Source: Nocardioides potassii
GTDB taxonomy: Bacteria; Actinomycetota; Actinomycetes; Propionibacteriales; Nocardioidaceae
Direction: 5' to 3'
NCBI RefSeq assembly: GCF_021648885.1
Contig: NZ_JAKJHZ010000007.1
Location: 62,001 to 126,000, forward strand
DNA: 64,000 nucleotides
Under the pieces are notes generated by a model. The model saw only the letters and a program-made list of their open reading frames with translations. It ran no database searches and was not told the DNA's origin. Below, piece by piece: positions 14,080 through 43,150 of the stretch. Position numbers and translations under genes: made by a program. Each line of letters begins with the position of its first letter. Positions within the stretch are counted from its first letter, which is position 1.

Positions 14080-16014
14080 TCAGCCTCCGTCGGTGGGGTT
14101 GCCCGGGACGCCGACCGTAGCCTGTCCACCGGCGTCGCCGTCGACCCCGGGGACACCTGAACCGTCGGACACCGGCTGAGGGTTCGCGCCAGTCCCGTCG
14201 GGGGCGTCGGCTGGGTCCGTCGGGTCGGTCGCGTCGTCCGGGTCGGGCGGGTCGGGCGGCTCGCCGAAGAGCAGCCTCCGCCAGTCGAAGTCGGGGTCGT
14301 GGTCGCCGGCGACGAGGCGGGCCTCCCACTCGACCAACCCTCGGTCCCCCGGCATCTCACCGACGGCGTTCGCGGCCAGGACGACCGCCTCGTCGTGCCT
14401 GCCAGCGCGCTCGAGCTGGTCCGCGGCCTCGAGCTGGATCAGCGCGTCGATCGCGGCCGGCAGGGGCGCGGCGCCCTTGGCTCGCCTGGCCTCGGCCCGC
14501 GCCCGGGCCATCAGGGCCCACTCGTCGACCGACCACTCGGGCACACCGTCGCCGGACAGGATCGCCGCCGTGAACGCGGCCGGGGACAACGTCTTGAGCG
14601 CGTCGGCGTGGTCGCGGACGAAGTCGACCGCCTCCGGCCGGTGCTCGGCGGGATCGACCCAGGCGTGCCAGAGAGCGTGAACGGCGACCAGGGCGGTCCT
14701 TGCCTCCCCGTCCGGCAGCCCCGGCACGGTCGCCTCGATCTCCCTGCACACGGCGTCCAGGGGGATCCCGTCGGAGTGGTGCCCGCCGATCCAGCCCATG
14801 AGCGCCTCCGCCAGCCCCTCGAGACGCTCGCCGGCGGTCTCGACCAGCGAGCCCGTGTGCCCGATCCAGTACTGCGGCGCCACCCGCATCTCCACGAGTC
14901 CCGGCAACGCGTCGCGGTAGTTCCACGGTTCCGGGGCGGGCTGGTCCGCGTCGGCGACGTAACGGCGGACGACGTGCCGCGTCAGGCGCCACAGCCCGGC
15001 GAGGGTGAGGACCCGCTCGACGCGCGGCTCGTAAGCCGTCTCCGCGCCGTCGGTGAACAACCAGACGCCCTCGCCGAGGTCCTCGAGCACGTGACTGCGT
15101 CGTGACCTGATGTCGTAGGCAACGGCGAGCAGCCGCTCCATGTCCGGCTCGCGCGGCGGCGCCGACGCGCCCGACGCCCCGTGCCTGTAGTAGTCCGCCG
15201 ACGTCCGCGCGAGCGTCGAGGCGACGAAGCGTCTCCTCAGCCCCGCCCGGTCGGCCTCGAGGACCGCGGAGCGGACCCTGTCCGCGTCGCCGGGGTCCAG
15301 ACCGGCCAGCGCGGCATCGAGGATCTTCCTCTTCGAGCCGTCGTAGCGGTCCCAGGTGACGGGCGTCGAGAGCTCCGCGTCCGAGAGCGACTCGAGCGCC
15401 GCGACCAGGTCGGTGTACGCCCCCATCGGGTCGTCGAGGGCCCGGCGTGTCGCGCCCACCGATCCGCGGATCGCGCGCATCACCCGCGCGAAGTCCTCGC
15501 GTCCCAGCGCGAGCAGGTCCTCCATGAAGGCGCGCAGGTCGGCCAGCTCCTCGGCCGTGATCACCTGTCGCGGCTCGAACAGGCCGGGGAACAAGTCCCG
15601 CGCGGACCGCCCTCGGGCGGCGCCGTTCCCCATCACCAGCCGACGAACCTGGTCGTGGTCGCGGCTGAAGGTGCGGTTCATCGCGAAGGTCATCACGTGG
15701 GCGAGGTCGTCGACCAGGTCGGTGCCCCCGGTCGCGATCAGGTAGTCGTCAGTGCCGTCCGCTCGCTTCTTCTCCAGGCGGTCGACGACCTCGAGCATCA
15801 CCGAGGAGACCGCGCCCGTGTCGGAGGACGGGATGACGGTGCCCACCGGCAGGGAGACCGGGTCGGAGCCCGGGAAGAACGCGTTGCCGTACGCCGTGTA
15901 GCGGTGAGTCGTCTCGTTGAGCGGCGCGTCGTCGCGGAAGAATCGTCCGGCGGAGACCTGCAGCATCAGTTGCCCCCGCAGCTCGCGTGGGGTGCTTGCC
16001 TTCGGTCGCGACAC
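14080..16014 (-). CDS. Large HEPN-like hypothetical protein
   Basis: About 644 residues if the GTG at 16014 is used; a GTG at 16191 would add 59 residues of uncertain character. Most of it is helical. Near 15085-15122 it has AYDIRSRRSHVLE, an R-x4-H motif in the context typical of HEPN ribonucleases (family knowledge: metal-independent RNases in many defence systems). A second helical repeat region (AADQLERAGRHDEAVVLAANAV) near the C-terminus recalls TPR-like helices. The last 60 residues are Pro/Asp/Gly-rich and probably disordered. It converges with the DUF2384-like gene and is divergent from the ATPase gene. Confidence 0.6.
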   Translation of the reverse strand: MSRPKASTPRELRGQLMLQVSAGRFFRDDAPLNETTHRYTAYGNAFFPGSDPVSLPVGTVIPSSDTGAVSSVMLEVVDRLEKKRADGTDDYLIATGGTDLVDDLAHVMTFAMNRTFSRDHDQVRRLVMGNGAARGRSARDLFPGLFEPRQVITAEELADLRAFMEDLLALGREDFARVMRAIRGSVGATRRALDDPMGAYTDLVAALESLSDAELSTPVTWDRYDGSKRKILDAALAGLDPGDADRVRSAVLEADRAGLRRRFVASTLARTSADYYRHGASGASAPPREPDMERLLAVAYDIRSRRSHVLEDLGEGVWLFTDGAETAYEPRVERVLTLAGLWRLTRHVVRRYVADADQPAPEPWNYRDALPGLVEMRVAPQYWIGHTGSLVETAGERLEGLAEALMGWIGGHHSDGIPLDAVCREIEATVPGLPDGEARTALVAVHALWHAWVDPAEHRPEAVDFVRDHADALKTLSPAAFTAAILSGDGVPEWSVDEWALMARARAEARRAKGAAPLPAAIDALIQLEAADQLERAGRHDEAVVLAANAVGEMPGDRGLVEWEARLVAGDHDPDFDWRRLLFGEPPDPPDPDDATDPTDPADAPDGTGANPQPVSDGSGVPGVDGDAGGQATVGVPGNPTDGG

Positions 16015-16227
16015 CGTCCCATTCTCGTCGTCGGGACCAAACCGCGACGCCGGACGACGGCCCGGCGCGTGCTCGTCCGGTCGTATCGGTCCGGTGGTCG
16101 CGCGTCTCCCGCCGACGGCCGCGCCTGCGGTCGTTCCCGGCGCCGGCGCGTCTGTCGGCACGGCGACGCACGTCGCGCGGCCAGACGCCACGGCGCGCCA
16201 CTAGTCTCTCGTCATGAGGTCAGGACG

Positions 16228-18228
16228 TTGAGCCGCGAGCTGGAGATGTCCTTCGCGGGCTCTCTCGTCAAGCACCTGGGGCTGCAGATGTACTCCGGTG
16301 CCGTCCCCGCCCTGGCGGAGCTCGTCTCGAACGCGTGGGACGCAGACGCGACGAGGGTGTCGCTGACGATCCCGCTCGACACGCCGATCGGGCCCGACGC
16401 GGAGATAGTCGTGCGCGACGACGGCGAGGGCATGTCGTTCTCGGAGGTGCGCGACAAGTACCTGCTGCTGGGCCGCGACCGCCGCGAGGCCGACGGCGAC
16501 CGCACGCGACAGTCGAACCGGCCGGTGCTCGGGCGCAAGGGCATCGGCAAGCTCGCGGGGTTCGGCATCGCGCGCGTCGTCGAGGTCTGGACAGTCAAGG
16601 ACGGCCACCTCACCGCGTTCCGGATGAACTACGACGACATCACCGCAGCGCGGTCGGCCGTCGCGGCCTACAGGCCCGAGGTGCTGCACGACCGCGCGGT
16701 CACCGACGAGGACCCCCTCAGCGGCGGAACGATGATCAGGCTCAGTCGCATCCAGCTGAAGAACAGGGTGGGGCGAGAGCGCTTCCTGCGCGGCCTCAGC
16801 CGCCGGTTCTCCCTGCTCTCTGCGAACTTCGTTGTCGAGGTCAACGGCGAGGAGCTGACCCGGGAGGACATGCCGCTGCAGTTCCGGTTCCCCGAGAGCG
16901 GCTACGAGGTCGCCGACGTGCCCGGTCTCGGCACCGTCCAGTGGTGGGCGGGGTTCACCGAGCGACCGATCCAGGTTGAGGAGGCGCGCGGCATCTCCGT
17001 CCTGGCACGGGGAAAGATCGCCCAGTCGCCCTTCTTCTTCGAGCTCGCGGGGGGCGCGCAGAGCCAGCTCGGGCTGCAGTACCTGACCGGGGAGGTGTTC
17101 GCCGACGGGCTGGACTCGGACGAGGCGGACCTCATCGCCACCGACCGCGCCAGCGTGCTGTGGGAACACCCCGTGGCCGAGCCCCTGCTCGAGTGGGGAC
17201 AGGCCAAGGTGCGCCAGCTCCTGCGCGACTGGAGCCGCCTGCGGCAGGAGAGGCAGGTGGAGCGGCTGCGCGGCTCCACGCCTTACATGAGCATGGTCGA
17301 GAAGTTCCCTGCCCGCGAGAAGCGCGAGCTGCTCTCCGCGATCGACACGCTCTCGCGCATCGAGACCATCGAGAACGAGCGGCTCGACGAGATCGTCAAA
17401 ATCCTCATCCAGGCCTACGAGAACGACCACTTCCTGAACGTCATCCGCGCCCTCCGCGACATCGAGGCGTCCGCGCAGGACGAGATCGTCAAGATCATCG
17501 AGGAGTGGGACGTCATCGAGGCAGTCCAGACGGCCCAGCTCGTCAGGGGACGCGTCGAGATCATCAAGACCTTCGAGGCCATGATCGCGGAGCGGGTACC
17601 CGAGAAGCCCGACATGCAGGACTTCCTCAAGTCCCACCCCTGGCTCATCGACCCGGCCTGGCAGATGATGGCGCACGAGCGATCGCTCGAGAACGTGCTC
17701 GAGGACCACTTCAACAAGAAGAAGCAGCGCAAGAAGCGCGGCGGTCGCCGCCTCGACTTCCTCTGCCTCGCCGACTCCTCGCACGCCGTCGTGGTCGAGG
17801 TGAAGCGCCCCGGCGACAGGGCAGGGGTCACCGAGCTGCGCCAGCTCGAGGACTACCTCATGTACCTGCGTCGCCGCAACGACGAGGTGACCGGCGGACG
17901 GTCGAAGCGTCACAGGATCTCCGGGGTCCTCATCCACAGCCGCATGGACGAGGACGGCCGCGAACTCGCCGAACGCCTCGCGAAGGGGGGAGACGCCATC
18001 ATCGTCACCTGGGACTCCCTCCTCGAGACCGCCAGGCGCCTGCACGGGGAGTTCTTCGACCTCATGGTCTCGCGGGCACCGAGCGACGACCCCCGCGTCG
18101 AGGCCCTGCTGGGATTGGAGGACGAGCCGGACGCCGGGTCGAAGCAGGGGGACGCTGAGCGGTGGGACGCCGAGCCTGCCGGTGGAGAGGGCGAGGGTCC
18201 TGCCGAGGCGCCGCCGGCAGAATCGTGA
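16228..18228 (+). CDS. GHKL ATPase fused to PD-(D/E)xK nuclease
   Basis: A 666-residue protein. The N-terminal GHKL (Hsp90/MutL/MORC-type) ATPase shows the N-box ELVSNAWDAD (31-40), DDGEGM (64-69) and GRKGIGKLAG (102-111). A middle helical, probably coiled-coil region covers about 330-460. The C-terminal nuclease resembles the Shedu/DUF4263 group: FLKSHPWLI, then D510, then E524-V-K526 in VVEVKRPG. MutL/MORC-like ATPases with nucleases occur beside DNA methyltransferases in restriction-like systems (Iyer, Abhiman and Aravind 2008). The TTG start at 16228 follows AGGTCAGGA; an ATG at 16246 is the alternative. The methyltransferase starts 62 bases downstream. Confidence 0.85.
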   Translation: MSRELEMSFAGSLVKHLGLQMYSGAVPALAELVSNAWDADATRVSLTIPLDTPIGPDAEIVVRDDGEGMSFSEVRDKYLLLGRDRREADGDRTRQSNRPVLGRKGIGKLAGFGIARVVEVWTVKDGHLTAFRMNYDDITAARSAVAAYRPEVLHDRAVTDEDPLSGGTMIRLSRIQLKNRVGRERFLRGLSRRFSLLSANFVVEVNGEELTREDMPLQFRFPESGYEVADVPGLGTVQWWAGFTERPIQVEEARGISVLARGKIAQSPFFFELAGGAQSQLGLQYLTGEVFADGLDSDEADLIATDRASVLWEHPVAEPLLEWGQAKVRQLLRDWSRLRQERQVERLRGSTPYMSMVEKFPAREKRELLSAIDTLSRIETIENERLDEIVKILIQAYENDHFLNVIRALRDIEASAQDEIVKIIEEWDVIEAVQTAQLVRGRVEIIKTFEAMIAERVPEKPDMQDFLKSHPWLIDPAWQMMAHERSLENVLEDHFNKKKQRKKRGGRRLDFLCLADSSHAVVVEVKRPGDRAGVTELRQLEDYLMYLRRRNDEVTGGRSKRHRISGVLIHSRMDEDGRELAERLAKGGDAIIVTWDSLLETARRLHGEFFDLMVSRAPSDDPRVEALLGLEDEPDAGSKQGDAERWDAEPAGGEGEGPAEAPPAES

Positions 18229-18290: not shown

Positions 18291-19334
18291 GTGCCCGCAC
18301 CGACCGCGATCGACCTCTTCGCCGGCGCCGGCGGTGCCACCCAAGGTCTGCGGGACGCCGGTTTCCGCGTCGTCGCCGCCGTCGAGAACGACGCCCACGC
18401 GGCGGCGAGCTGGCGTCTGAACCACCCCGGGAAGATGTTCGAGAGCGACGTGCGCGAGGTCGCCACCGCGGACCTCGCGGCGCTGCTGAACGGGGCGCGG
18501 CTCGACCTGCTCAAGGCGTGCCCGCCCTGCCAGGGGTTCTCGTCACTACGGGGGGCCAACGACCCCGACGCCGCGCGCAACGACCTCGTGCTCGACACGA
18601 TCCGTCTCGTGGACGGTCTGACGCCCCGCGCCGTGCTCCTCGAGAACGTCCCCGGCCTGCGCCGCGACGCCCGGTTCCCGAACCTCGTCGCCGCGTTGCG
18701 CGAGCGCGGGTACGGGCTGCGCGACTACCTCGTGGAGGCGAGCGCGCTGGGCGTCCCGCAGCGCCGCCGCCGGCTCGTCCTCATCGCCGTGGACCTCGCC
18801 GGGTCGACGCCACCGCCCGACACCCTCGACGAGCTCATCCCCCCGTCGCGCAGACCCGACGGCGTCACCGCCGGTGAGGCCCTCGCCCGCCTGAGCGACG
18901 CCCTGCCGGAGGGCGACCCGTGGCACCGGTGGCGGCAGAGCCGCCCGGCGGTGCGCCGGCGTATCGAGGCCGTACCGGTCGACGGGAACCGCTTCGACCT
19001 CCCGGCCGAGCACCAGCTCGAGTGCCACACCCGCCTTGGCAAGCAGGTCGCCACCGCGAGCTACGGTCGCGTGAAGGCGGGTGCCGTCGCGCCCACCATG
19101 ACGACCCGGTGCACCACGCCGTCGTGCGGCAGCTTCATCCACCCGAGCGAGGACCGAGGCCTCTCGATCCGCGAGGCGGCCGCGTTCCAGACCTTCCCCC
19201 ACGACTACCTGTGGTCGGGAGGGTACGACTCGGTGGAACGACAGATCGGCAACGCGGTCCCGGTAGGCATGGCCCGAGAGTTGGGGAGCGCCGTCCTGCG
19301 ACTGCTCGACGGCGAACTCCCGGACGCGGATTGA
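18291..19334 (+). CDS. dcm: DNA (cytosine-5-)-methyltransferase
   Basis: A complete 347-residue C5 methyltransferase. Visible motifs are I (DLFAGAGG, residues 8-15), IV (ACPPCQGFS with catalytic Cys80), VI (LENV), VIII (QRRRR) and X (GNAVP near the C-terminus). It methylates cytosine in a recognition site set by the variable region between motifs VIII and IX, about residues 165-250; the site cannot be read from sequence. Start GTG 18291. It overlaps the next gene by TTGA, and it is the natural partner of the broken vsr gene at 8.6-8.9 kb and of the adjacent ATPase-nuclease. Confidence 0.95.
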   Translation: MPAPTAIDLFAGAGGATQGLRDAGFRVVAAVENDAHAAASWRLNHPGKMFESDVREVATADLAALLNGARLDLLKACPPCQGFSSLRGANDPDAARNDLVLDTIRLVDGLTPRAVLLENVPGLRRDARFPNLVAALRERGYGLRDYLVEASALGVPQRRRRLVLIAVDLAGSTPPPDTLDELIPPSRRPDGVTAGEALARLSDALPEGDPWHRWRQSRPAVRRRIEAVPVDGNRFDLPAEHQLECHTRLGKQVATASYGRVKAGAVAPTMTTRCTTPSCGSFIHPSEDRGLSIREAAAFQTFPHDYLWSGGYDSVERQIGNAVPVGMARELGSAVLRLLDGELPDAD

Positions 19335-35024: not shown

Positions 35025-35439
35025 CCCGTGCGTCCCATCGACCGCGAGTCGTGACTTCGCCGACCTGCCGGTCGTCAGTCCACGATGGCGGGTGTGCGGG
35101 CCTCTGTTCGGGCCTGCACCTGCGCGCCGGCCGTACCGTGGCAGGGCGGGGCGTCGCGGCCGGGGACACCACGCGCATCGGCGGATCCGGTCGCCGGGAT
35201 GTCGCCTCAGTCGGTGAGCGACCGACACGGCTTCGGCGCTCCACCCGACGAGGCGACGCCCCACCATGAACCCGCCTTGGTGTGGCCGCAGCACCGCCGG
35301 TCTCACGCGCAGTCTCACTGGGGTCGAAATGGCACAGTTTGGTAACGACACGAACTGAGACGAACAGTGCACGTGCATGGCCTCTGACCTGCGAAAACAC
35401 GGGTACACCGTTCGCTTCTGTTCGTCTCGGCCTCGGGAA
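35025..35439. other. Gene-free stretch next to att site (415 bases)
   Basis: No gene, integrase or excisionase was recognised here, although it is the terminal part of the inferred island. Open frames on both strands have no plausible start signals or family likeness. Confidence 0.5.
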
Positions 35440-35489
35440 GCATCTGACTACGGATCAGAAGGTTTGGGGTTCGAATCCCTACAGGCGCG
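35440..35489 (+). mobile_element. 3' fragment of tRNA-Arg(ACG): putative att site
   Basis: The sequence matches the anticodon arm (CTGA-CTACGGA-TCAG, anticodon ACG), variable loop, T arm (GGTTCGAATCC) and 3' acceptor strand (CAGGCGC plus discriminator G) of a tRNA-Arg. The 5' acceptor strand and D arm are absent: the bases before 35440 do not pair with the acceptor end. This is the standard scar where an integrase uses a tRNA 3' end and rebuilds the intact tRNA at the other side of the element. That other end must lie left of the window. Confidence 0.75.
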
Positions 35490-35507
35490 CAGAACGGCTC
35501 AACGAGA

Positions 35508-35569: not shown

Positions 35570-36445
35570 CTAGCGCTGCCGCCCGGCCTGGCCCGCGAGT
35601 GCCTCGATGGCACGCGCCCAGAGGCGGTCGGAGTCACGCACCGACGTCTCGACCTCCCCGGCGTCGACCAGCACCCGGTCCACCTCGGGCGGTGCCGCGA
35701 CGCCGGCGCGGCTCGTGATCGCGGTCAGGGCACGTGCGGCCGAGACGACCACCGAGCGACGCGTGCTGAGGAACGTCTCGTAGGTCCGCGGGCCCGACGA
35801 CGAGGGCACCTCCCAGGCGGACAGGAGGACCGCGAAGCCGGGGGCGAGCGCGACGACGCACCACTCGCGCAGCATGGGCGAGTCCGGAGGCAGGTCGACC
35901 AGGACCGGACGTCCGGCGCGGCCGGCTCCCTCCGGGGCCTCCTCGTCGTGGGGCCAGCCGGTGAAGTCCGCCAGCACCACGCACCACGTCGAGGTCCGCG
36001 CGAGCTCCTCCCAGCGCCCGCGGGACCTGTCGAACGCCTGGCCGTCCTGGAAGCCGCCCCACACGACGGTCGGCTCTCCCCGGGCCATCAGCTCGTCCTC
36101 CATCGCGGTGGACAGCGCGACCAGGGTCCGGTGGTCGAGCCGCATGCGTCGCAGCTCAGGGTGCTCGTCGGCCAGCGTGGCGTGCACCGACGCCCGGTCC
36201 GCACCACGCGCCCGGTCGGTGGCGGCCTTGATCGCGACCGCCAGCGTGAGCCCGCGATCGCGGCCGTCGAGGATCTCGCGCACGAGGGAGACGTCGTCGT
36301 CGGTGTAGCGGCGGTGCCCCGCCGACGTCCGGACGCCGATCTCCAGCCCGAAGCGCCGCTCCCAGGCCCGCACCACCTCGGGGGTGAGCCCGGTGCGCTC
36401 GGCCAGGACCCCGATGCCGAAGCGCGCTGCCGACCCGGACGTCAT
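35570..36445 (-). CDS. MerR-type regulator with DICT sensory domain
   Basis: A 291-residue regulator. Residues 8-75 form a MerR winged helix (FGIGVLAERTGLTPEVVRAWERR and SAGHRRYTDDDV). Residues 110-240 form a DICT domain (RTLVALSTAMEDEL, VVWGGFQDG, WCVVLADF), a fold predicted to take part in light responses. The ATG at 36445 gives the usual MerR start; an upstream GTG would add eight residues. It diverges from the sunscreen operon, making it the prime candidate for its regulator. A homologous C-terminus lies at the right end of the window. Confidence 0.85.
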   Translation of the reverse strand: MTSGSAARFGIGVLAERTGLTPEVVRAWERRFGLEIGVRTSAGHRRYTDDDVSLVREILDGRDRGLTLAVAIKAATDRARGADRASVHATLADEHPELRRMRLDHRTLVALSTAMEDELMARGEPTVVWGGFQDGQAFDRSRGRWEELARTSTWCVVLADFTGWPHDEEAPEGAGRAGRPVLVDLPPDSPMLREWCVVALAPGFAVLLSAWEVPSSSGPRTYETFLSTRRSVVVSAARALTAITSRAGVAAPPEVDRVLVDAGEVETSVRDSDRLWARAIEALAGQAGRQR

Positions 36446-36576
36446 GGTGGTCCACCGCCTCCCAGGCACGGCCTTCGTCCGGCTCTGGACGACGAGGACA
36501 GGGTACGCAGCATCGCGCCGGGTGACCGCCTCGACGAGCAGGTCACCCCAAGGGGTCAGGTGCAGGGGATCGGCCC

Positions 36577-36687: not shown

Positions 36688-37338
36688 TTGACCGCCATCC
36701 TGTTCGGCTCGATCAGCACGCTCGCCGACACCTCCGAGATCCAGCGCGACGCCTTCAACCAGGCGTTCGCCGAGCACGGCCTCGACTGGACGTGGGACCG
36801 GGAGACCTACGCCGGTCTCCTCGACTCCAACGGAGGCCGCGACCGTGTCGCGTCCTACGCCGCGGAGCGCGGGGAGGACGTCGACGCCGACGCCGTCCAC
36901 GCCACCAAGTCGCGCATCTACCAGGAGACCCTCCGCTCGACCGACGTCTCGCCGCGCGAGGGCGTCGCCGAGACGATGCGGGCCGCCAAGGACGAGGGCC
37001 ACCAGCTCGGCCTGGTGACCACGACGTCGGCCGACAACCTCGCCGCGCTGCGCGACGCCCTGAGCGGCAAGGTCGACTTCGACGACTTCGGCGTGGTCGT
37101 CGACCAGTCCCAGGTGTCCGAGCGCAAGCCGGACCCCGAGGCGTACACGGTCGCCCTGCGGACCCTCGGGGTGCCCGCCGACGACGCCGTCGCCATCGAG
37201 GACAACCTCGGCGGTGTCGAGTCCGCACGTGCCGCCGGCGTCGAGGTGGTCGCCTTCCCCAACGGCAACACGGTGGACCACGACTTCGGGCCCACCCGCC
37301 GGGTTGAGTCGGTGAGCCTGGAGGACCTGCGCGCATGA
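36688..37338 (+). CDS. HAD-fold protein lacking the catalytic aspartate
   Basis: A 216-residue protein of the HAD phosphatase fold (CbbY/Gph-like): cap region at about 15-85, motif II (VTTTSADN), motif III lysine in [10 protein letters not shown], and motif IV (AIEDNLGG). Motif I, normally FDxDGT, reads [11 protein letters not shown], so both aspartates including the nucleophile are missing. The TTG start at 36688 is supported by GAGAGG 7 bases upstream. Its stop overlaps the start of mysA (ATGA). It is the first gene of the sunscreen operon; a structural or sensing role is more likely than catalysis. Confidence 0.8.
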
Positions 37339-38561
37339 GCGAGATCCTCGACCGGCCCCTCGCCCGCCTGACGGCGACGCCGACGAGCTTCCACGTCGAG
37401 GCCTACGAGAAGATCGACTACACCCTCGACTACGTCGACGGGGTCTTCGACCTGGGCAACCCGCAGCTCGCGTCCGCGTTCGCCGGCCAGGAGCGGTGCC
37501 TCATGGTCATCGACGAGAACGTGCTGCGACTCCACAGGTCCGCTGCCGAGGAGTACTTCGCCCACCACGGCATCGAGCTCGACGTCGTGCCGGTGCGCAT
37601 CGCGGAGACCGCGAAGTCGCTGCGCACGCTCGAGGAGATCGTGGACGCGTTCGCCGCGTCCGGGCTCAACCGCAAGGACCGCGTCCTCGTCGTCGGCGGC
37701 GGGCTCACCACCGACGTCGCCGGCTTCGCGTGCGCGTCCTACAAGCGCAGCACGGACTACGTCCGCATCCCCACCACCCTCATCGGCCTGATCGACGCCA
37801 GCGTCTCGATCAAGGTGGGGGCCAACCACGGCAAGCACAAGAACCGGCTCGGCGCCTACCACGCCAGCAAGCAGGTGCTGCTCGACTTCTCGATGCTGCG
37901 CACGCTCCCGGTGGACCAGGTCCGCAACGGCATCGCCGAGATCATCAAGATCGCGGTGGTCGCCCACGGCGGCATCTTCGACCAGCTCGAGAAGTACGCC
38001 GAGGAGCTGCTGACCACTTCCTTCGGCCAGGCCGAGGGCGCCGAGCACCTGCGCGAGGTGGCGGACTCGATCACCTACGACGCCATCCGGACCATGCTCG
38101 AGCTCGAGGTGCCCAACCTCCACGAGCTCGACCTCGACCGGGTGATCGCGTACGGCCACACCTGGAGCCCGACCCTCGAGCTCGCCCCCGACCCCCCGCT
38201 GTTCCACGGCCACGCCATCAGCGTGGACATGGCCTACTCGGCGACCGTCGCCGCCCACCGCGGTCTCATCTCCGAGGGTGACCGCGACCGGATCCACGGT
38301 CTCTTCAGCTCGGTCGGTCTCGCGATCGACAACCCGCTCTTCACCGCCGACCTGGTCCGGCGGGCGACGGACTCGATCCTCCAGACCCGGGACGGGCTGC
38401 TGCGCGCGGCCGTGCCGGGCCCGATCGGCACCTGCCACTTCCTCAACGACCTGACCGCGGACGAGCTGGCCGAGCTGCTCACGGTCCACAAGGAGCTGGC
38501 CTCCGGCTACCCGCGCGGCGGCGAGGGCGTGGAGCAGTACACGGCCCCCGAGGTCCGGTGA
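37335..38561 (+). CDS. mysA: Sedoheptulose-7-phosphate cyclase (desmethyl-4-deoxygadusol synthase type)
   Basis: A 408-residue enzyme of the dehydroquinate-synthase superfamily that cyclises sedoheptulose 7-phosphate with NAD+ and zinc. Visible are [45 protein letters not shown] and the metal-site region GHTWSPTLE with [15 protein letters not shown]. The neighbours (O-methyltransferase, MysC-like ATP-grasp) show it is the 2-demethyl-4-deoxygadusol synthase of mycosporine synthesis rather than a valiolone synthase. Start and stop overlap both neighbours (ATGA and GTGA). Confidence 0.9.
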
Positions 38562-39391
38562 GCAGCGCCCACGACCAGGCCACGCGATCCCCACGGCCGG
38601 TGACGCCCGTGGGGATCGCGGGCGCGCTGCTCGACTCGGTCGTGCGCCGGCTGGACGCGGGCGAGGAGGTGGGCGAGGACCTGATGGGTGACCTGTCCCG
38701 CGCACGGGACCTCGTCCGCGGTCTCGACGACTACGTGGCCCGCAGCACGACCGCACCCACCGCCGACCTCGTCGAGCTCGAGCGTCGTACGCGGCATGAG
38801 CCGTGGACCGACTCCCCCGGTCCGCTCGAGCAGGAGATGCTGAGCGGCGCGGTGGAGGGCGCGTTCCTGCGGATGCTGGTCGCCGCCACCGGCGCCGTCG
38901 ACGTCCTCGAGATCGGCATGTTCACCGGGTACTCGGCGCTCGCCATGGCCCAGGCCCTGCCCGACGGTGGCCGGGTGGTGGCGTGCGAGATCGACGACCG
39001 CGCGGCCGAGATCGCCCGCTCCGCGTTCGCGCAGGCGCGCGGCGGCGACCGGGTCGACGTCCGGGTGGGCCCGGCAGCAACGACCCTCCGCGACCTCGCC
39101 TCGAACGGCGACCGCTTCGACCTGGTCTTCCTCGACGCCGACAAGCCCGGGTACGACGGCTACGTGCGCGACCTGCTCGACCTCGACCTGCTGGCCGAGG
39201 ACGGGCTGCTCTGCATCGACAACACCCTCATGCAGGGCGAGCCCTGGGCGGCCGGTCCGGGCGGGGCGTCGGCCAACGGTGTCGCCATCACCACCTTCAA
39301 CCTCGCCCTGGCGGCCGACGAGCGGGTGGAGCAGGTCCTGGTGCCGCTGCGCGACGGGGTGACCCTCGCCCGCCGGGTCCGGCGCCCGTGA
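38558..39391 (+). CDS. mysB: SAM-dependent O-methyltransferase of mycosporine synthesis
   Basis: A 277-residue class I methyltransferase of the caffeoyl-CoA type. [46 protein letters not shown] and [10 protein letters not shown] closely follow cyanobacterial MysB. It methylates the cyclase product to 4-deoxygadusol. GTG start at 38558 overlaps the mysA stop (GTGA). Confidence 0.9.
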
Positions 39392-40698
39392 GGCCGGCGC
39401 TGCGCGAGCGTGCGCGGTCGGTCGCGGCCATCGGTCTGCTGGAGGCGACGCTGCCCCTCAACCTGCTCCTCGTCGGCGCCGCGGTCGCCCGCCGCGGTCC
39501 GCACGCCCGCCAGGCGTCGCCGCGACCTCGGACCGTGCTGCTCAGCGGCGGCAAGATGACCAAGTCACTCGTCCTGGCCCGGCTCCTGCACGCCGCCGGC
39601 CACCGCGTCGTGCTGGTGGAGACCGCCCGCTACCGGTGGACCGCACACCGCTTCTCCCGCGCGGTCGCGGCCTTCCACGTGGTCCCCGACCCGGGCACGC
39701 CGGCGTACGTCGACGCTGTCGAGCGCGTCGTCCGGGCCGAGGGAGTGGACGTGTGGATCCCGGTGTCCAGCCCCGCGTCGAGCGTGCCCGAGGCCGAGGC
39801 CGCAGCACGGCTCGGCGACCTCTGCGAGGTCGTCCACCTCGACACCGAGACCCTCCGCCGCGTCGACGACAAGCACGCCTTCGCCGAGATGGCGGCCGCC
39901 ATCGACCTGCCCGTCCCGCGGACGCACCGGATCACCGATCCCCAGCAGGTCCTCGACTTCGACTTCTCGGCGCACCCCGGCCCGTGGGTGCTCAAGAGCA
40001 TCCCCTACGACCCGGTGCTGCGGCTCGACCTCACGCCGCTGCCACGTCCGACGGCCGAGGAGACGGCGGACTTCGTCCGCGGCCTGCCGATCTCCGCGGA
40101 GCACCCCTTCATCCTGCAGGAGCTGCTGGAGGGCACCGAGTGGTGCACCCATGGGACGGCGCGGGGAGGCAGGCTGCAGGTGTACGTCTGCTGCCGCTCG
40201 TCCGCGTGGCAGCTCACCTACGAGCACGTCGAGCACGCGGGCGTGCGCGCGTGGGTCGAGCGGTTCGTGTCGGACTACGGACTGACCGGCCAGGTCTCGT
40301 TCGACTTCATCGAGGGAGCCGACGGCGTGGTTCGCGCCATCGAGTGCAACCCGCGCGCGCACTCGGCGATCACCCTGCTGGCCGGACGGCCCGAGGTGGC
40401 GGCCGCGTACCTCGAGGACGACGCCCCGCCGGTCGAGCCTGCGGTCGGCGGCGCACCGACGTACTGGCTCCACCACGAGCTGTGGCAGTCCGTCCGGCAC
40501 CCGGCCAGTGCGCCCGGCCGCCTGCGCACCGTGCTCCGCGGCGACGAGTCCGTCCTCGACGGCCACGACCCGTTGCCGTTCCTCCTGCTGCACCACCTCC
40601 ACCTGCCGTCGCTGCTGTGGCAGAACCTGCGTCGCGGCCGACCCTGGCTCAAGATCGACGTCAACATCGGCAAGCTCGTCGAGCCGGCGGGGGACTGA
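39388..40698 (+). CDS. mysC: ATP-grasp enzyme, mycosporine-glycine synthase
   Basis: A 436-residue ATP-grasp ligase. After a hydrophobic N-terminus come TVLLSGGKMTKSLVLARLLHAAGH and VDVWIPVSSPASS, typical of MysC, then the ATP-grasp core (PWVLKSIPYDP, FILQELLEGTEW, SFDFIEGADG, IECNPRAHS). It activates 4-deoxygadusol and adds glycine to give mycosporine-glycine. GTG start at 39388 overlaps the mysB stop (GTGA). Confidence 0.9.
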   Translation: MRPALRERARSVAAIGLLEATLPLNLLLVGAAVARRGPHARQASPRPRTVLLSGGKMTKSLVLARLLHAAGHRVVLVETARYRWTAHRFSRAVAAFHVVPDPGTPAYVDAVERVVRAEGVDVWIPVSSPASSVPEAEAAARLGDLCEVVHLDTETLRRVDDKHAFAEMAAAIDLPVPRTHRITDPQQVLDFDFSAHPGPWVLKSIPYDPVLRLDLTPLPRPTAEETADFVRGLPISAEHPFILQELLEGTEWCTHGTARGGRLQVYVCCRSSAWQLTYEHVEHAGVRAWVERFVSDYGLTGQVSFDFIEGADGVVRAIECNPRAHSAITLLAGRPEVAAAYLEDDAPPVEPAVGGAPTYWLHHELWQSVRHPASAPGRLRTVLRGDESVLDGHDPLPFLLLHHLHLPSLLWQNLRRGRPWLKIDVNIGKLVEPAGD

Positions 40699-40699
40699 C

Positions 40700-41809
40700 G
40701 TGCGGCTGCTGCACCTGACCGGCTCCGCCGTCGACCCTCTCCTGGACGACGTCTCGCGCCTCTACGCCCGCGGCTGCCTCGACGCCGTCGGCACCCTCGA
40801 GGGCCTCGAGCACGTCGTCGCGCACGTGTCGCCGGGCGGCGCCTGGCGGTTCCCCGCCGCCCTCGACGACGCCTCCCTGGCGCAGGCACCTGCACTGGAC
40901 CTGGGACAGGCGGTGGACCGGCTCGCGACGCTCGGCATCGACGCCGCACTCCCCCAGATGTTCTGCCGCCCCGGGATGACCACCTACCGCGGGCTGCTCG
41001 AGCTGCTCGACATCCCCTACGTCGGCAACCGGCCGGACACGATGGCGCTGGGGGCCGACAAGCCGCGCGCCTCCGCCGTGGTGAAGGCCGCGGGCGTCGC
41101 CGTCCCGGACTCGCAGGTGGTGCTCGCCGGCGCCTCCGTCGAGACGCTCGCGATCGACCTCCCGGTGGTCGTCAAGCCGGCCGACTCCGACAACTCCCTC
41201 GGCGTCCGGCTCGTGCGGGCCGCCGCCGAGTGGGACGACGCGGTGCGCGAAGCGGCGCAGCACGCGACAGGCGGCCGGGTGCTGGTGGAGTCCTACGTCG
41301 AGCTCGGACACGAGGTCCGGTGCGGTGTGGTGCAGCACGGCGACACGCTGCGGTGCCTGCCCCTGGAGGAGTACGCCGTCGACGCCGAGCACAAGCCCGT
41401 GCGGGACCACGACGACAAGCTGCGCCGCGACGACGCGGGCGACCTCGGCCTGGTGGCCAAGGACGCCGACCACGCGTGGGTGCTCGACCCCGACGACCCG
41501 GCCACCGCGGGGATGACCCGGGCGGTCCAGGACGCGGCCCTGCTCGCCTACGACGCCCTCGGCTGCCGCCACCACGGGTTGTTCGACTTCCGGGTCGACC
41601 CCGGCGGGACGCCGTACTTCCTCGAGGCCTCGCTCTACTGCTCCTTCGCCCCGTCGTCGGTCGTGGTCACGATGGCGCGGGCCGCGGGGCTGGCGCTCCC
41701 CGACCTGCTCACCAGCTCGCTGGCGCTCGTGGCGACTCCTCCGGGGACTCCCGGACCCGACCAGCACCTCGCCCCCGCGACCCCTCCACGGAAGGACCCG
41801 ACCCGATGA
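40700..41809 (+). CDS. mysD: D-Ala-D-Ala ligase-like enzyme of mycosporine synthesis
   Basis: A 369-residue ATP-grasp protein of the D-Ala-D-Ala ligase family: YVGNRPDTMALGADKP, LPVVVKPADSDNSLGV, VLVESYVELGHEVRCGV and DFRVDPGGTPYFLEAS. In mycosporine clusters this enzyme attaches a second amino acid (serine, threonine or similar) to mycosporine-glycine, giving shinorine- or porphyra-type products. GTG start at 40700, one base after mysC; its stop overlaps the oxygenase start (ATGA). Confidence 0.9.
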   Translation: MRLLHLTGSAVDPLLDDVSRLYARGCLDAVGTLEGLEHVVAHVSPGGAWRFPAALDDASLAQAPALDLGQAVDRLATLGIDAALPQMFCRPGMTTYRGLLELLDIPYVGNRPDTMALGADKPRASAVVKAAGVAVPDSQVVLAGASVETLAIDLPVVVKPADSDNSLGVRLVRAAAEWDDAVREAAQHATGGRVLVESYVELGHEVRCGVVQHGDTLRCLPLEEYAVDAEHKPVRDHDDKLRRDDAGDLGLVAKDADHAWVLDPDDPATAGMTRAVQDAALLAYDALGCRHHGLFDFRVDPGGTPYFLEASLYCSFAPSSVVVTMARAAGLALPDLLTSSLALVATPPGTPGPDQHLAPATPPRKDPTR

Positions 41810-42591
41810 GGACCGACCTGCTCCACCCGGCCGGCGTACGGATCACCGGCATCCGCATCGCCGACGACCCGACCGCCCTGGCAGGCGTGCTGCCCGGCCT
41901 GCTCGCGGACCACGGGTTCGCGGTGCTGCCCGACCAGCCGCTCGACGACGACGAGTTCCTGGCGTTCCTGAAGGGGTTCGGCGACCTGACCTTCACGGCC
42001 GGCGAGGAGCACCTCGAGGGGCACCCCGACCTCAACGTCATCAGCAACGTCGGCCGGTGGGGCACCGACGCTCCGCCGAGGAGCTCGTTCCACGTGGACA
42101 CCAGCTACGTCGCGCAGCCACCGGCGTACACCGCACTGAGGGCGGTGACCGTGCCCGCGCAGGGCGGCGCCACCCAGTTCACCGACCAGTACCACGCCGC
42201 CGACACGCTCCCCGACGACCTGCGCAGCCGCGTGGAGGGCCGCACCATCACGCACGTCGTGACGGGTGTCGACCCGGTCGAGGGCGAGTCGTCCGCCGAC
42301 CACCCCGTGCTGCGGCCGCACCCGCTGACCGGCCGCACGGCGCTCTTCCTCACCACCCCGGCGAGGTGCGCCGCGGTCAGCGGGCTCGACCCGGAGGAGT
42401 CCGAGGAGCTGGTCCGCCTCCTGTTCGAGCACTCGACCGCTCCGGACAACGTGGTGTCGCACCGGTGGGCCCCCGACGACCTCGTGATCTGGGACAACGC
42501 CGCCGTGATGCACCGCGGGGACCACGACGGCGTGGTCGGCGATCGCGTGATGCACCGCGGCATGGTGCGAGCACACCCCACGGCCGGCTGA
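41806..42591 (+). CDS. mysH: Fe(II)/2-oxoglutarate oxygenase, MysH-like
   Basis: A 261-residue TauD-family oxygenase. The iron triad is seen as H-x-D in FHVDTSY and the distal histidine in NAAVMHRGDH, with the 2-oxoglutarate arginine in HRGMVRAH. As the last gene of a mys operon it matches MysH, which turns disubstituted mycosporines into palythine-type products. The ATG at 41806 overlaps the mysD stop. Confidence 0.85.
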   Translation: MRTDLLHPAGVRITGIRIADDPTALAGVLPGLLADHGFAVLPDQPLDDDEFLAFLKGFGDLTFTAGEEHLEGHPDLNVISNVGRWGTDAPPRSSFHVDTSYVAQPPAYTALRAVTVPAQGGATQFTDQYHAADTLPDDLRSRVEGRTITHVVTGVDPVEGESSADHPVLRPHPLTGRTALFLTTPARCAAVSGLDPEESEELVRLLFEHSTAPDNVVSHRWAPDDLVIWDNAAVMHRGDHDGVVGDRVMHRGMVRAHPTAG

Positions 42592-42613: not shown

Positions 42614-43150
42614 GTGCCGATCGACGACGCCACCCGTCCGCGCGTGGCGGGTTCCATCGAGCTGACGCCCGGCCAGAAGGTCGGCGGTCTCCACCTGAGA
42701 CAGATCCACGACCACTTCCGCCAGCAGCTCGAGACGATGACCCGGGCGGTCGAGGCGGTCCGCGACGGGACCGGCGAGCTCGACGCCGTACGAGCCGGGG
42801 TGCACGGCCTCGCTCCGGCACTGACCGCGCAGCAGGCGGCCGGGCTCTGCCGGCAGGTGTGCACGATGCTGACGATGCACCACTCGATCGAGGACCAGGC
42901 GATGTTCCCGGCGGTCGCGACGCTCGAGGACTACGCCCCGGTCGCGGCGCGGCTGGCCGAGGAGCACCTGGTCATCCACGACCACCTCGAGAAGGTCGAC
43001 GGCCTCGCCGTCGCGTCGTACTCCGACTCCTCGCGCATCGCCGACCTGGTCGAGGCGGTCGCCGAGCTCCGGTCCGACCTGGAGTCGCACTTCACCTACG
43101 AGGAGACCGAGATGGCCGAGCCCCTCGGCCTGCTCGGGCTCGGCGTCTAG
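42614..43150 (+). CDS. Hemerythrin HHE-domain protein
   Basis: A 178-residue protein with one HHE cation-binding domain: histidines in LRQIHDHFR, MHHSIEDQAMFP, EEHLVIHDHLE and SHFTYEE form the di-iron set. It could bind oxygen or nitric oxide, or serve iron handling. It starts at GTG 42614, 22 bases after the oxygenase, so it may be the seventh gene of the operon; a link to the iron-dependent oxygenase is speculative. Confidence 0.85.
   Translation: MPIDDATRPRVAGSIELTPGQKVGGLHLRQIHDHFRQQLETMTRAVEAVRDGTGELDAVRAGVHGLAPALTAQQAAGLCRQVCTMLTMHHSIEDQAMFPAVATLEDYAPVAARLAEEHLVIHDHLEKVDGLAVASYSDSSRIADLVEAVAELRSDLESHFTYEETEMAEPLGLLGLGV

What the first reader, a model, noticed from the sequence alone, without database searches (positions are those of the whole stretch)
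36688..42591. Complete mycosporine-like amino acid operon, including an MysH-type oxygenase
Six genes overlap or nearly touch in the order HAD, cyclase, O-methyltransferase, ATP-grasp, Ala-ligase-like, Fe/2OG oxygenase. The first four enzymes after HAD equal MysA-MysD; MysH is known from cyanobacterial palythine synthesis. An actinobacterium with the palythine-forming oxygenase in the core operon would be notable, since known actinobacterial clusters are mainly shinorine-type.
Basis: partly seen in the sequence, partly recalled or inferred. Interest (0 to 1): 0.75.

Follow-up and report, generated by a model that had tools for sequence, protein, structure and literature searches.

The report
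Actinobacterial sunscreen operon with TauD oxygenase
A Nocardioides-like bacterium carries a complete, tightly packed set of genes for making mycosporine-type natural sunscreens, of a kind already reported in related bacteria; the one unreported twist is that its first gene codes for a phosphatase-like protein that, in every relative examined, has lost the residues that do the phosphatase chemistry.

Summary
Six overlapping genes at 36688-42591 encode a HAD-fold protein, MysA, MysB, MysC, MysD and an Fe/2OG oxygenase. MysA carries the active-site pair of desmethyl-4-deoxygadusol synthase (E258, A272), not that of valiolone synthase. The oxygenase is not MysH: it is TauD/TfdA family, with no detectable similarity to PhyH. 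It may still do MysH-like chemistry. This cluster type is already described: a 2025 preprint reports HAD and TauD/TfdA as conserved genes of actinobacterial MAA clusters, and cites an unpublished expression of the Rhodococcus fascians D188 operon that gave shinorine, palythine and palythine-serine. In an even draw of 296 genomes, 5 of 6 MAA-positive ones carry the oxygenase, so it is the rule. What I found unreported is that the HAD protein, a CbbY relative, has lost both catalytic aspartates (DxD replaced by G-S-I) in 80 of 80 related loci, while the other phosphatase motifs are invariant. It occurs in exactly the 6 MAA-positive genomes of 296. The DxD-less HAD and TauD also occur as an adjacent pair in two proteobacterial genomes without nearby MAA genes. 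The operon is a new member of a known kind; the HAD partner is the open question.

The parts
36688..37338 (+). HAD-fold protein, CbbY-like, 216 aa, TTG start; catalytic DxD replaced by G6-S7-I8 (numbered from the residue after the start codon)
   Evidence: PF13419 1.9e-23; best solved relative CbbY 4uat/4uar 134 bits; DxD loss; AF2 model pLDDT 96, VIA Z 29 to CbbY 4uar
37335..38561 (+). MysA, desmethyl-4-deoxygadusol synthase (sugar phosphate cyclase), 408 aa
   Evidence: 5tpr 547 bits vs ValA 4p53 252 bits; E258 and A272 at the EEVS/DDGS fingerprint positions
38558..39391 (+). MysB, O-methyltransferase, 277 aa
   Evidence: PF01596 7e-49; conserved neighbour in relatives
39388..40698 (+). MysC, ATP-grasp ligase (4-deoxygadusol + glycine), 436 aa
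   Evidence: NCBIfam PRK06849 3.5e-108; 42-59% identity to MysC in other actinobacterial and cyanobacterial mys clusters
40700..41809 (+). MysD, D-Ala-D-Ala-ligase-like imine-forming ligase, 369 aa
   Evidence: PF07478 1.2e-19; median 53% identity to MysD in 71 related loci
41806..42591 (+). TauD/TfdA-family Fe(II)/2-oxoglutarate oxygenase, proposed palythine-forming, 261 aa
   Evidence: PF02668 5.7e-53, only Pfam hit even at E<=10; H96, D98, H236 and R247 conserved in 63-64 of 64 orthologs
35570..36469 (-). Divergent MerR-DICT regulator, possible but not conserved controller
   Evidence: PF13411 + PF10069; found in only 1 of 80 related loci

Best explanation
This is a complete actinobacterial MAA operon. 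MysA makes desmethyl-4-deoxygadusol from sedoheptulose 7-phosphate, MysB methylates it, MysC adds glycine (mycosporine-glycine) and MysD adds a second amino acid, probably serine (shinorine). The TauD-family oxygenase then most likely hydroxylates the alpha carbon of the C1 glycine, so that the side chain falls off as glyoxylate and leaves the free imine of palythine or palythine-serine. The HAD-fold protein is a CbbY derivative that cannot use the usual phosphoaspartate mechanism; it probably binds a phosphorylated sugar or assists the oxygenase step. Shown by sequence: gene content, order, cyclase type, oxygenase family with intact metal and 2OG residues, loss of the HAD nucleophile. Inferred: substrates, the palythine step, any role for HAD.
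For: Family assignments. Cyclase nearest to cyanobacterial DDGS 5tpr, with E258/A272 where ValA has Leu/Asp (73 of 74 relatives the same). Oxygenase with intact HxD...H in 64 of 64 orthologs and Arg in 63 plus one gap. The same gene order in Rhodococcoides fascians A44A (L032), related to strain D188. D188 MysABC made mycosporine-glycine in Streptomyces (PMC11284840), and the D188 operon with HAD and TauD is cited as giving shinorine, palythine and palythine-serine (PMC11888242). The TauD enzyme MysI is proposed for the same kind of reaction in Nostoc (PMC10510106).
Against: No product has been measured in this organism. The palythine result for D188 is an unpublished meeting abstract quoted second hand. 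MysI is proposed to act on the C3 glycine, so the regiochemistry of TauD enzymes in this pathway is unsettled. The second amino acid set by MysD was not tested.
Confidence: 0.75

Rival explanations
1. The operon makes shinorine or porphyra-334, and the TauD oxygenase tailors the product in another way (ring or side-chain hydroxylation, or action on the C3 amino acid as proposed for MysI).
For: MysI, also TauD family, is proposed to act at C3. The TauD family has a wide substrate range.
Against: The R. fascians operon with the same genes is cited as giving palythine and palythine-serine.
Confidence: 0.17
2. The cyclase makes 2-epi-5-epi-valiolone, so this is a C7-cyclitol (pseudosugar) cluster and not an MAA cluster.
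For: Same superfamily; 252 bits to ValA.
Against: 547 bits to DDGS 5tpr; E258/A272 instead of the ValA residues; MysB, MysC and MysD are adjacent in 71-74 of 80 related loci.
Confidence: 0.02
3. The HAD protein is an ordinary sugar phosphatase that supplies or trims a precursor.
For: HAD_2 domain, CbbY fold, motifs II-IV kept.
Against: Nucleophile and acid/base Asp are both absent in 80 of 80 loci, while 22 of 23 weaker cyanobacterial matches and all five weaker actinobacterial ones keep DxD.
Confidence: 0.06

Closest known systems
Actinobacterial MAA cluster with HAD and TauD/TfdA (GATOR-GC, PMC11888242; Rhodococcus fascians D188 operon)
   Same: Same six gene families; R. fascians A44A (L032) has the same order
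   Different: R. fascians A44A proteins are 52-63% identical to the window's; the source treats HAD only by domain and, in the passages read, does not mention that the DxD motif is missing
Cyanobacterial mysABCD with MysH (Nostoc linckia NIES-25)
   Same: Core enzymes MysA-D and the proposed oxidative loss of the glycine side chain
   Different: MysH is PhyH family; the oxygenase here is TauD family, and a PhyH protein beside a cyanobacterial mys cluster has no significant BLASTP match to it
MysI (TauD/TfdA dioxygenase, Nostoc sp. UHCC 0926, PMC10510106)
   Same: Same Pfam family, proposed similar oxidative removal of a glycine side chain
   Different: MysI sits with MysF and MysE and is proposed to act at C3; its sequence was not obtained, so orthology is untested
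CbbY, xylulose-1,5-bisphosphate phosphatase
   Same: Fold (VIA Z 29.0, rmsd 2.2 over 215 residues), motifs II, III and IV
   Different: No DxD; not in a Calvin-cycle operon

Membership tests
MAA (shinorine-type) biosynthetic cluster | DDGS-type cyclase with DDGS active-site fingerprint | tested here: met
   547 bits to 5tpr; E258, A272. The identity of the fingerprint residues is my own knowledge of Kean et al. 2014; the eLife paper confirms only that two such sites exist
MAA (shinorine-type) biosynthetic cluster | O-methyltransferase, ATP-grasp ligase and D-Ala-ligase-like enzyme contiguous with the cyclase | tested here: met
MAA (shinorine-type) biosynthetic cluster | UV-absorbing MAA product | not testable with these tools
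   needs LC-MS
MysH (palythine-forming oxygenase) | Phytanoyl-CoA dioxygenase (PhyH) family | tested here: not met
   only Pfam hit at E<=10 is TauD; no significant alignment with a mys-adjacent PhyH protein of G493
MysH (palythine-forming oxygenase) | Converts shinorine-type MAA to palythine | not testable with these tools
   needs enzyme assay
MysI | TauD/TfdA-family oxygenase in an MAA cluster | tested here: met
   PF02668 5.7e-53
MysI | Falls in the MysI clade, next to MysF and MysE | tested here: inconclusive
   no MysF or MysE in the operon; MysI sequence not identified in the genomes searched
TauD/TfdA Fe(II)/2OG oxygenase | HxD...H metal triad and 2OG-binding Arg | tested here: met
   H96, D98, H236 in 64 of 64, R247 in 63 of 64 with one gap
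HAD phosphatase (CbbY) | DxD motif I (nucleophile and acid/base Asp) | tested here: not met
   G6-S7-I8; G and S in 67 of 67 aligned sequences
HAD phosphatase (CbbY) | Motif II Thr/Ser, motif III Lys, motif IV acidic pair | tested here: met
   T112, K146, E170, D171 in 67 of 67

The most novel reading that the evidence does not exclude
A CbbY-type HAD protein that lost its phosphatase nucleophile was recruited, together with a TauD oxygenase, as a two-gene oxidation module. In MAA clusters it takes part in the palythine step, for example by cleaving the alpha-hydroxyglycine intermediate as the lyase half of peptidylglycine amidation does, or by presenting the substrate. The same pair works on other substrates in proteobacteria.
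Probability: 0.15. Interest if true: 0.65.

Novelty: new member of a known kind. Interest (0 to 1): 0.36.

Why it matters
The operon adds a Nocardioides example to a known actinobacterial sunscreen cluster and corrects the oxygenase family, which matters for anyone mining palythine producers: PhyH-based searches would miss it. The HAD result turns a vague 'conserved HAD hydrolase' into a sharp question, namely what a phosphatase fold without its nucleophile does in nearly every actinobacterial MAA cluster sampled, and it predicts that a phosphatase assay will fail.

Tried and rejected
MysH assignment: rejected by family and by direct comparison. Valiolone synthase: rejected. HAD obligatorily tied to TauD: rejected, because seven HAD-bearing clusters without a nearby TauD have no close ortholog (best about 36%) anywhere in the genome, and two Actinomycetospora clusters keep HAD beside a shortened TauD that lacks the metal-binding segment (L062, L067, and for L067). 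HAD needed for MAA core synthesis: rejected, since 27 of 28 mysC-positive cyanobacterial genomes in the sample have no match at or above 40% identity. Genomic-island origin via the tRNA-Arg at 35414: no integrase was seen among ten ORFs scanned between 14 and 35 kb and no clear attachment repeat found; not pursued. Attempt to find MysI through TauD paralogs of mysC-positive cyanobacteria gave no MysF/MysE neighbourhood. Miyamoto 2014 and Chen 2021 are not held in the library. Plasmid collection gave one mysC record only, without HAD or TauD ortholog nearby.

Full report
Observation. Six + strand genes run from 36688 to 42591: HAD (TTG start at 36688), MysA, MysB, MysC, MysD and an oxygenase. 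Four junctions are 4-nt start/stop overlaps and one has a single base between stop and start. Domain scans give HAD_2, DHQ_synthase, Methyltransf_3, PRK06849 (MysC-like ATP-grasp), Dala_Dala_lig_C and TauD. The coordinates in the finding are correct.

Cyclase type. MysA matches the solved enzyme 5tpr (deposited as 3-dehydroquinate synthase; [quoted passage not shown] At the two positions that I know from Kean et al. 2014 to separate the types, the window and 5tpr have Glu (E258) and Ala (A272), where ValA has Leu and Asp; 73 of 74 MysA proteins in related loci have the same pair. The eLife gadusol paper confirms that two fingerprint sites exist but the residues are from memory.

Oxygenase. PF02668 (TauD) is the only Pfam hit even at E<=10. 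Nearest solved structures are PlaO1, aryloxyalkanoate dioxygenases and TauD. The HxD...H triad (H96, D98, H236) is invariant in 64 orthologs, and R247 in all but one gapped row. A PhyH-family protein about 4 kb from mysC in cyanobacterium G493, the kind of gene MysH is, shows no significant similarity. So the enzyme is not a member of the MysH family; whether it does the MysH reaction is a separate question. In Nostoc a TauD enzyme, MysI, was proposed for a similar reaction at C3, and its authors conclude that the two oxygenase types were recruited independently (PMC10510106). ScoE, a TauD relative matched weakly by the window protein, oxidises an N-carboxymethyl (glycine-derived) carbon, which from my own knowledge is a chemical precedent.

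What was already known. A 2025 preprint found HAD and TauD/TfdA as conserved genes of actinobacterial MAA clusters and cites an unpublished meeting abstract in which the Rhodococcus fascians D188 operon, with both, gave shinorine, palythine and palythine-serine in S. coelicolor (PMC11888242). R. fascians D188 MysABC gave mycosporine-glycine in S. albidoflavus (PMC11284840). In my search R. fascians A44A (L032) has the window's gene order. The claim that an oxygenase in an actinobacterial MAA operon would be notable is thus not supported.

Distribution. In an even draw of 296 genomes of the window's phylum, mysC occurs in 6, the HAD (51% identity or more) in the same 6 and no others, and the TauD ortholog in 5 of those 6. 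Six of six against zero of 290 has a hypergeometric probability of about 1e-12 (my arithmetic). In the window's own genus the cluster is rare: 2 of 37 genomes counting the window. The closest operons, 62-81% identical in all six proteins, are in Nocardioides (L016-L019). In 244 cyanobacterial genomes, 28 have mysC but only the centre genome G358, itself picked because it has them, has the HAD and the TauD ortholog. Other cyanobacterial loci (L050, L070, L075, L082, L086, L094) also carry the HAD, five of these six with the TauD ortholog beside it (L094 lies in G358). The preprint states that HAD and TauD were not present in Cyanobacteriota; these loci are exceptions, though several are metagenome bins.

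The HAD protein. Its nearest solved relative is CbbY. CbbY has FDVDGT at motif I; the window has FGSIST. All 80 HAD loci fetched with peptide patterns that did not include this motif have GSI or GSL; these are the best 80 of 215 relatives, so more distant ones were not seen there. In a 67-sequence alignment G6 and S7 are invariant and position 8 is Ile or Leu, while T112, K146, E170 and D171 (motifs II, III, IV), and also S15, Q18, R19, R52, K73, R89 and N116, are invariant. This is selective loss of the nucleophile and acid/base within an otherwise conserved site, not decay. All five weaker matches (40% or less) in the actinobacterial draw, and all but one of the weak cyanobacterial ones, keep DxD. 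The maximum-likelihood tree puts all 89 GS-type sequences on one side of a single branch (100/99) from 28 DxD sequences; the bootstrap had not fully settled and a few outer rows are long. The predicted structure (pLDDT 96) is CbbY-like: VIA Z 29.0, rmsd 2.2 over 215 residues to 4uar. I found no report of this loss in the library, which holds only open-licence papers.

HAD and TauD as a pair. In three cyanobacterial loci (L082, L086, L094) HAD and TauD form a pair divergent from mysDCBA. In a Polaromonas bin without detectable mysC (L169), and in another proteobacterial genome, G710 (L284), a GS-type HAD overlaps a TauD ortholog (42-47% identity) with no mys genes in the stretch read; in G710 the pair lies between RND and MFS transporter genes, and its whole genome was not searched for mysC. 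The DxD-less family is wider still: Roseobacter litoralis (L232) and several proteobacteria have GSI or GAI forms without an adjacent TauD. Conversely HAD is kept in clusters without TauD (Actinomycetospora, Solirubrobacter), and L062 and L067 carry a shortened TauD (the missing metal-binding segment was read in L067). So the HAD is not strictly tied to the oxygenase, and its role is open.

Verdict. A complete and probably functional MAA operon, most likely shinorine then palythine type, of a kind already described. The added value is the correction of the oxygenase family, the population-level co-occurrence, and the nucleophile-less HAD.

Noticed in passing
L011, L013, L060 and several cyanobacterial loci (L144, L156, L158, L160, L161, L163-L165): These mys clusters carry a divergent cyclase (36-49% to the window MysA or to its alternative form) that in L060 has a long N-terminal extension; the actinobacterial ones still have the GSI-type HAD.
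   Followed up: partly
35570-36469 (-): Divergent MerR-DICT regulator directly upstream of the operon; present beside the cluster in only one of 80 related loci (L068).
   Followed up: partly
42614-43150 (+): Hemerythrin HHE-domain gene 22 nt after the oxygenase, possibly co-transcribed, but not found in the related clusters.
   Followed up: partly
35414-35490 (+): tRNA-Arg (acg) upstream of the operon, with a lower-GC stretch (22-36 kb) before it; no integrase seen among the ORFs scanned.
   Followed up: partly
15181-18228 (+) and 18291-19334 (+): Protein with HATPase_c_3 and a weak Shedu SduA C-terminal match beside a C-5 cytosine DNA methylase: a possible phage-defence locus.
   Followed up: no
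L062, L067 (Actinomycetospora): TauD oxygenase with an internal deletion in the region of the HxD metal motif inside otherwise intact mys clusters: natural loss of the proposed palythine step. Read directly in L067; in L062 inferred from the short match.
   Followed up: partly
L074:13001-14629: Photolyase-related protein (PF04244) just downstream of mysD in an uncultured actinobacterium, linking the sunscreen cluster to light damage repair.
   Followed up: no
L171 (cyanobacterium G424): A long-branch GSI-type HAD without adjacent TauD, far from the genome's mysC gene.
   Followed up: no
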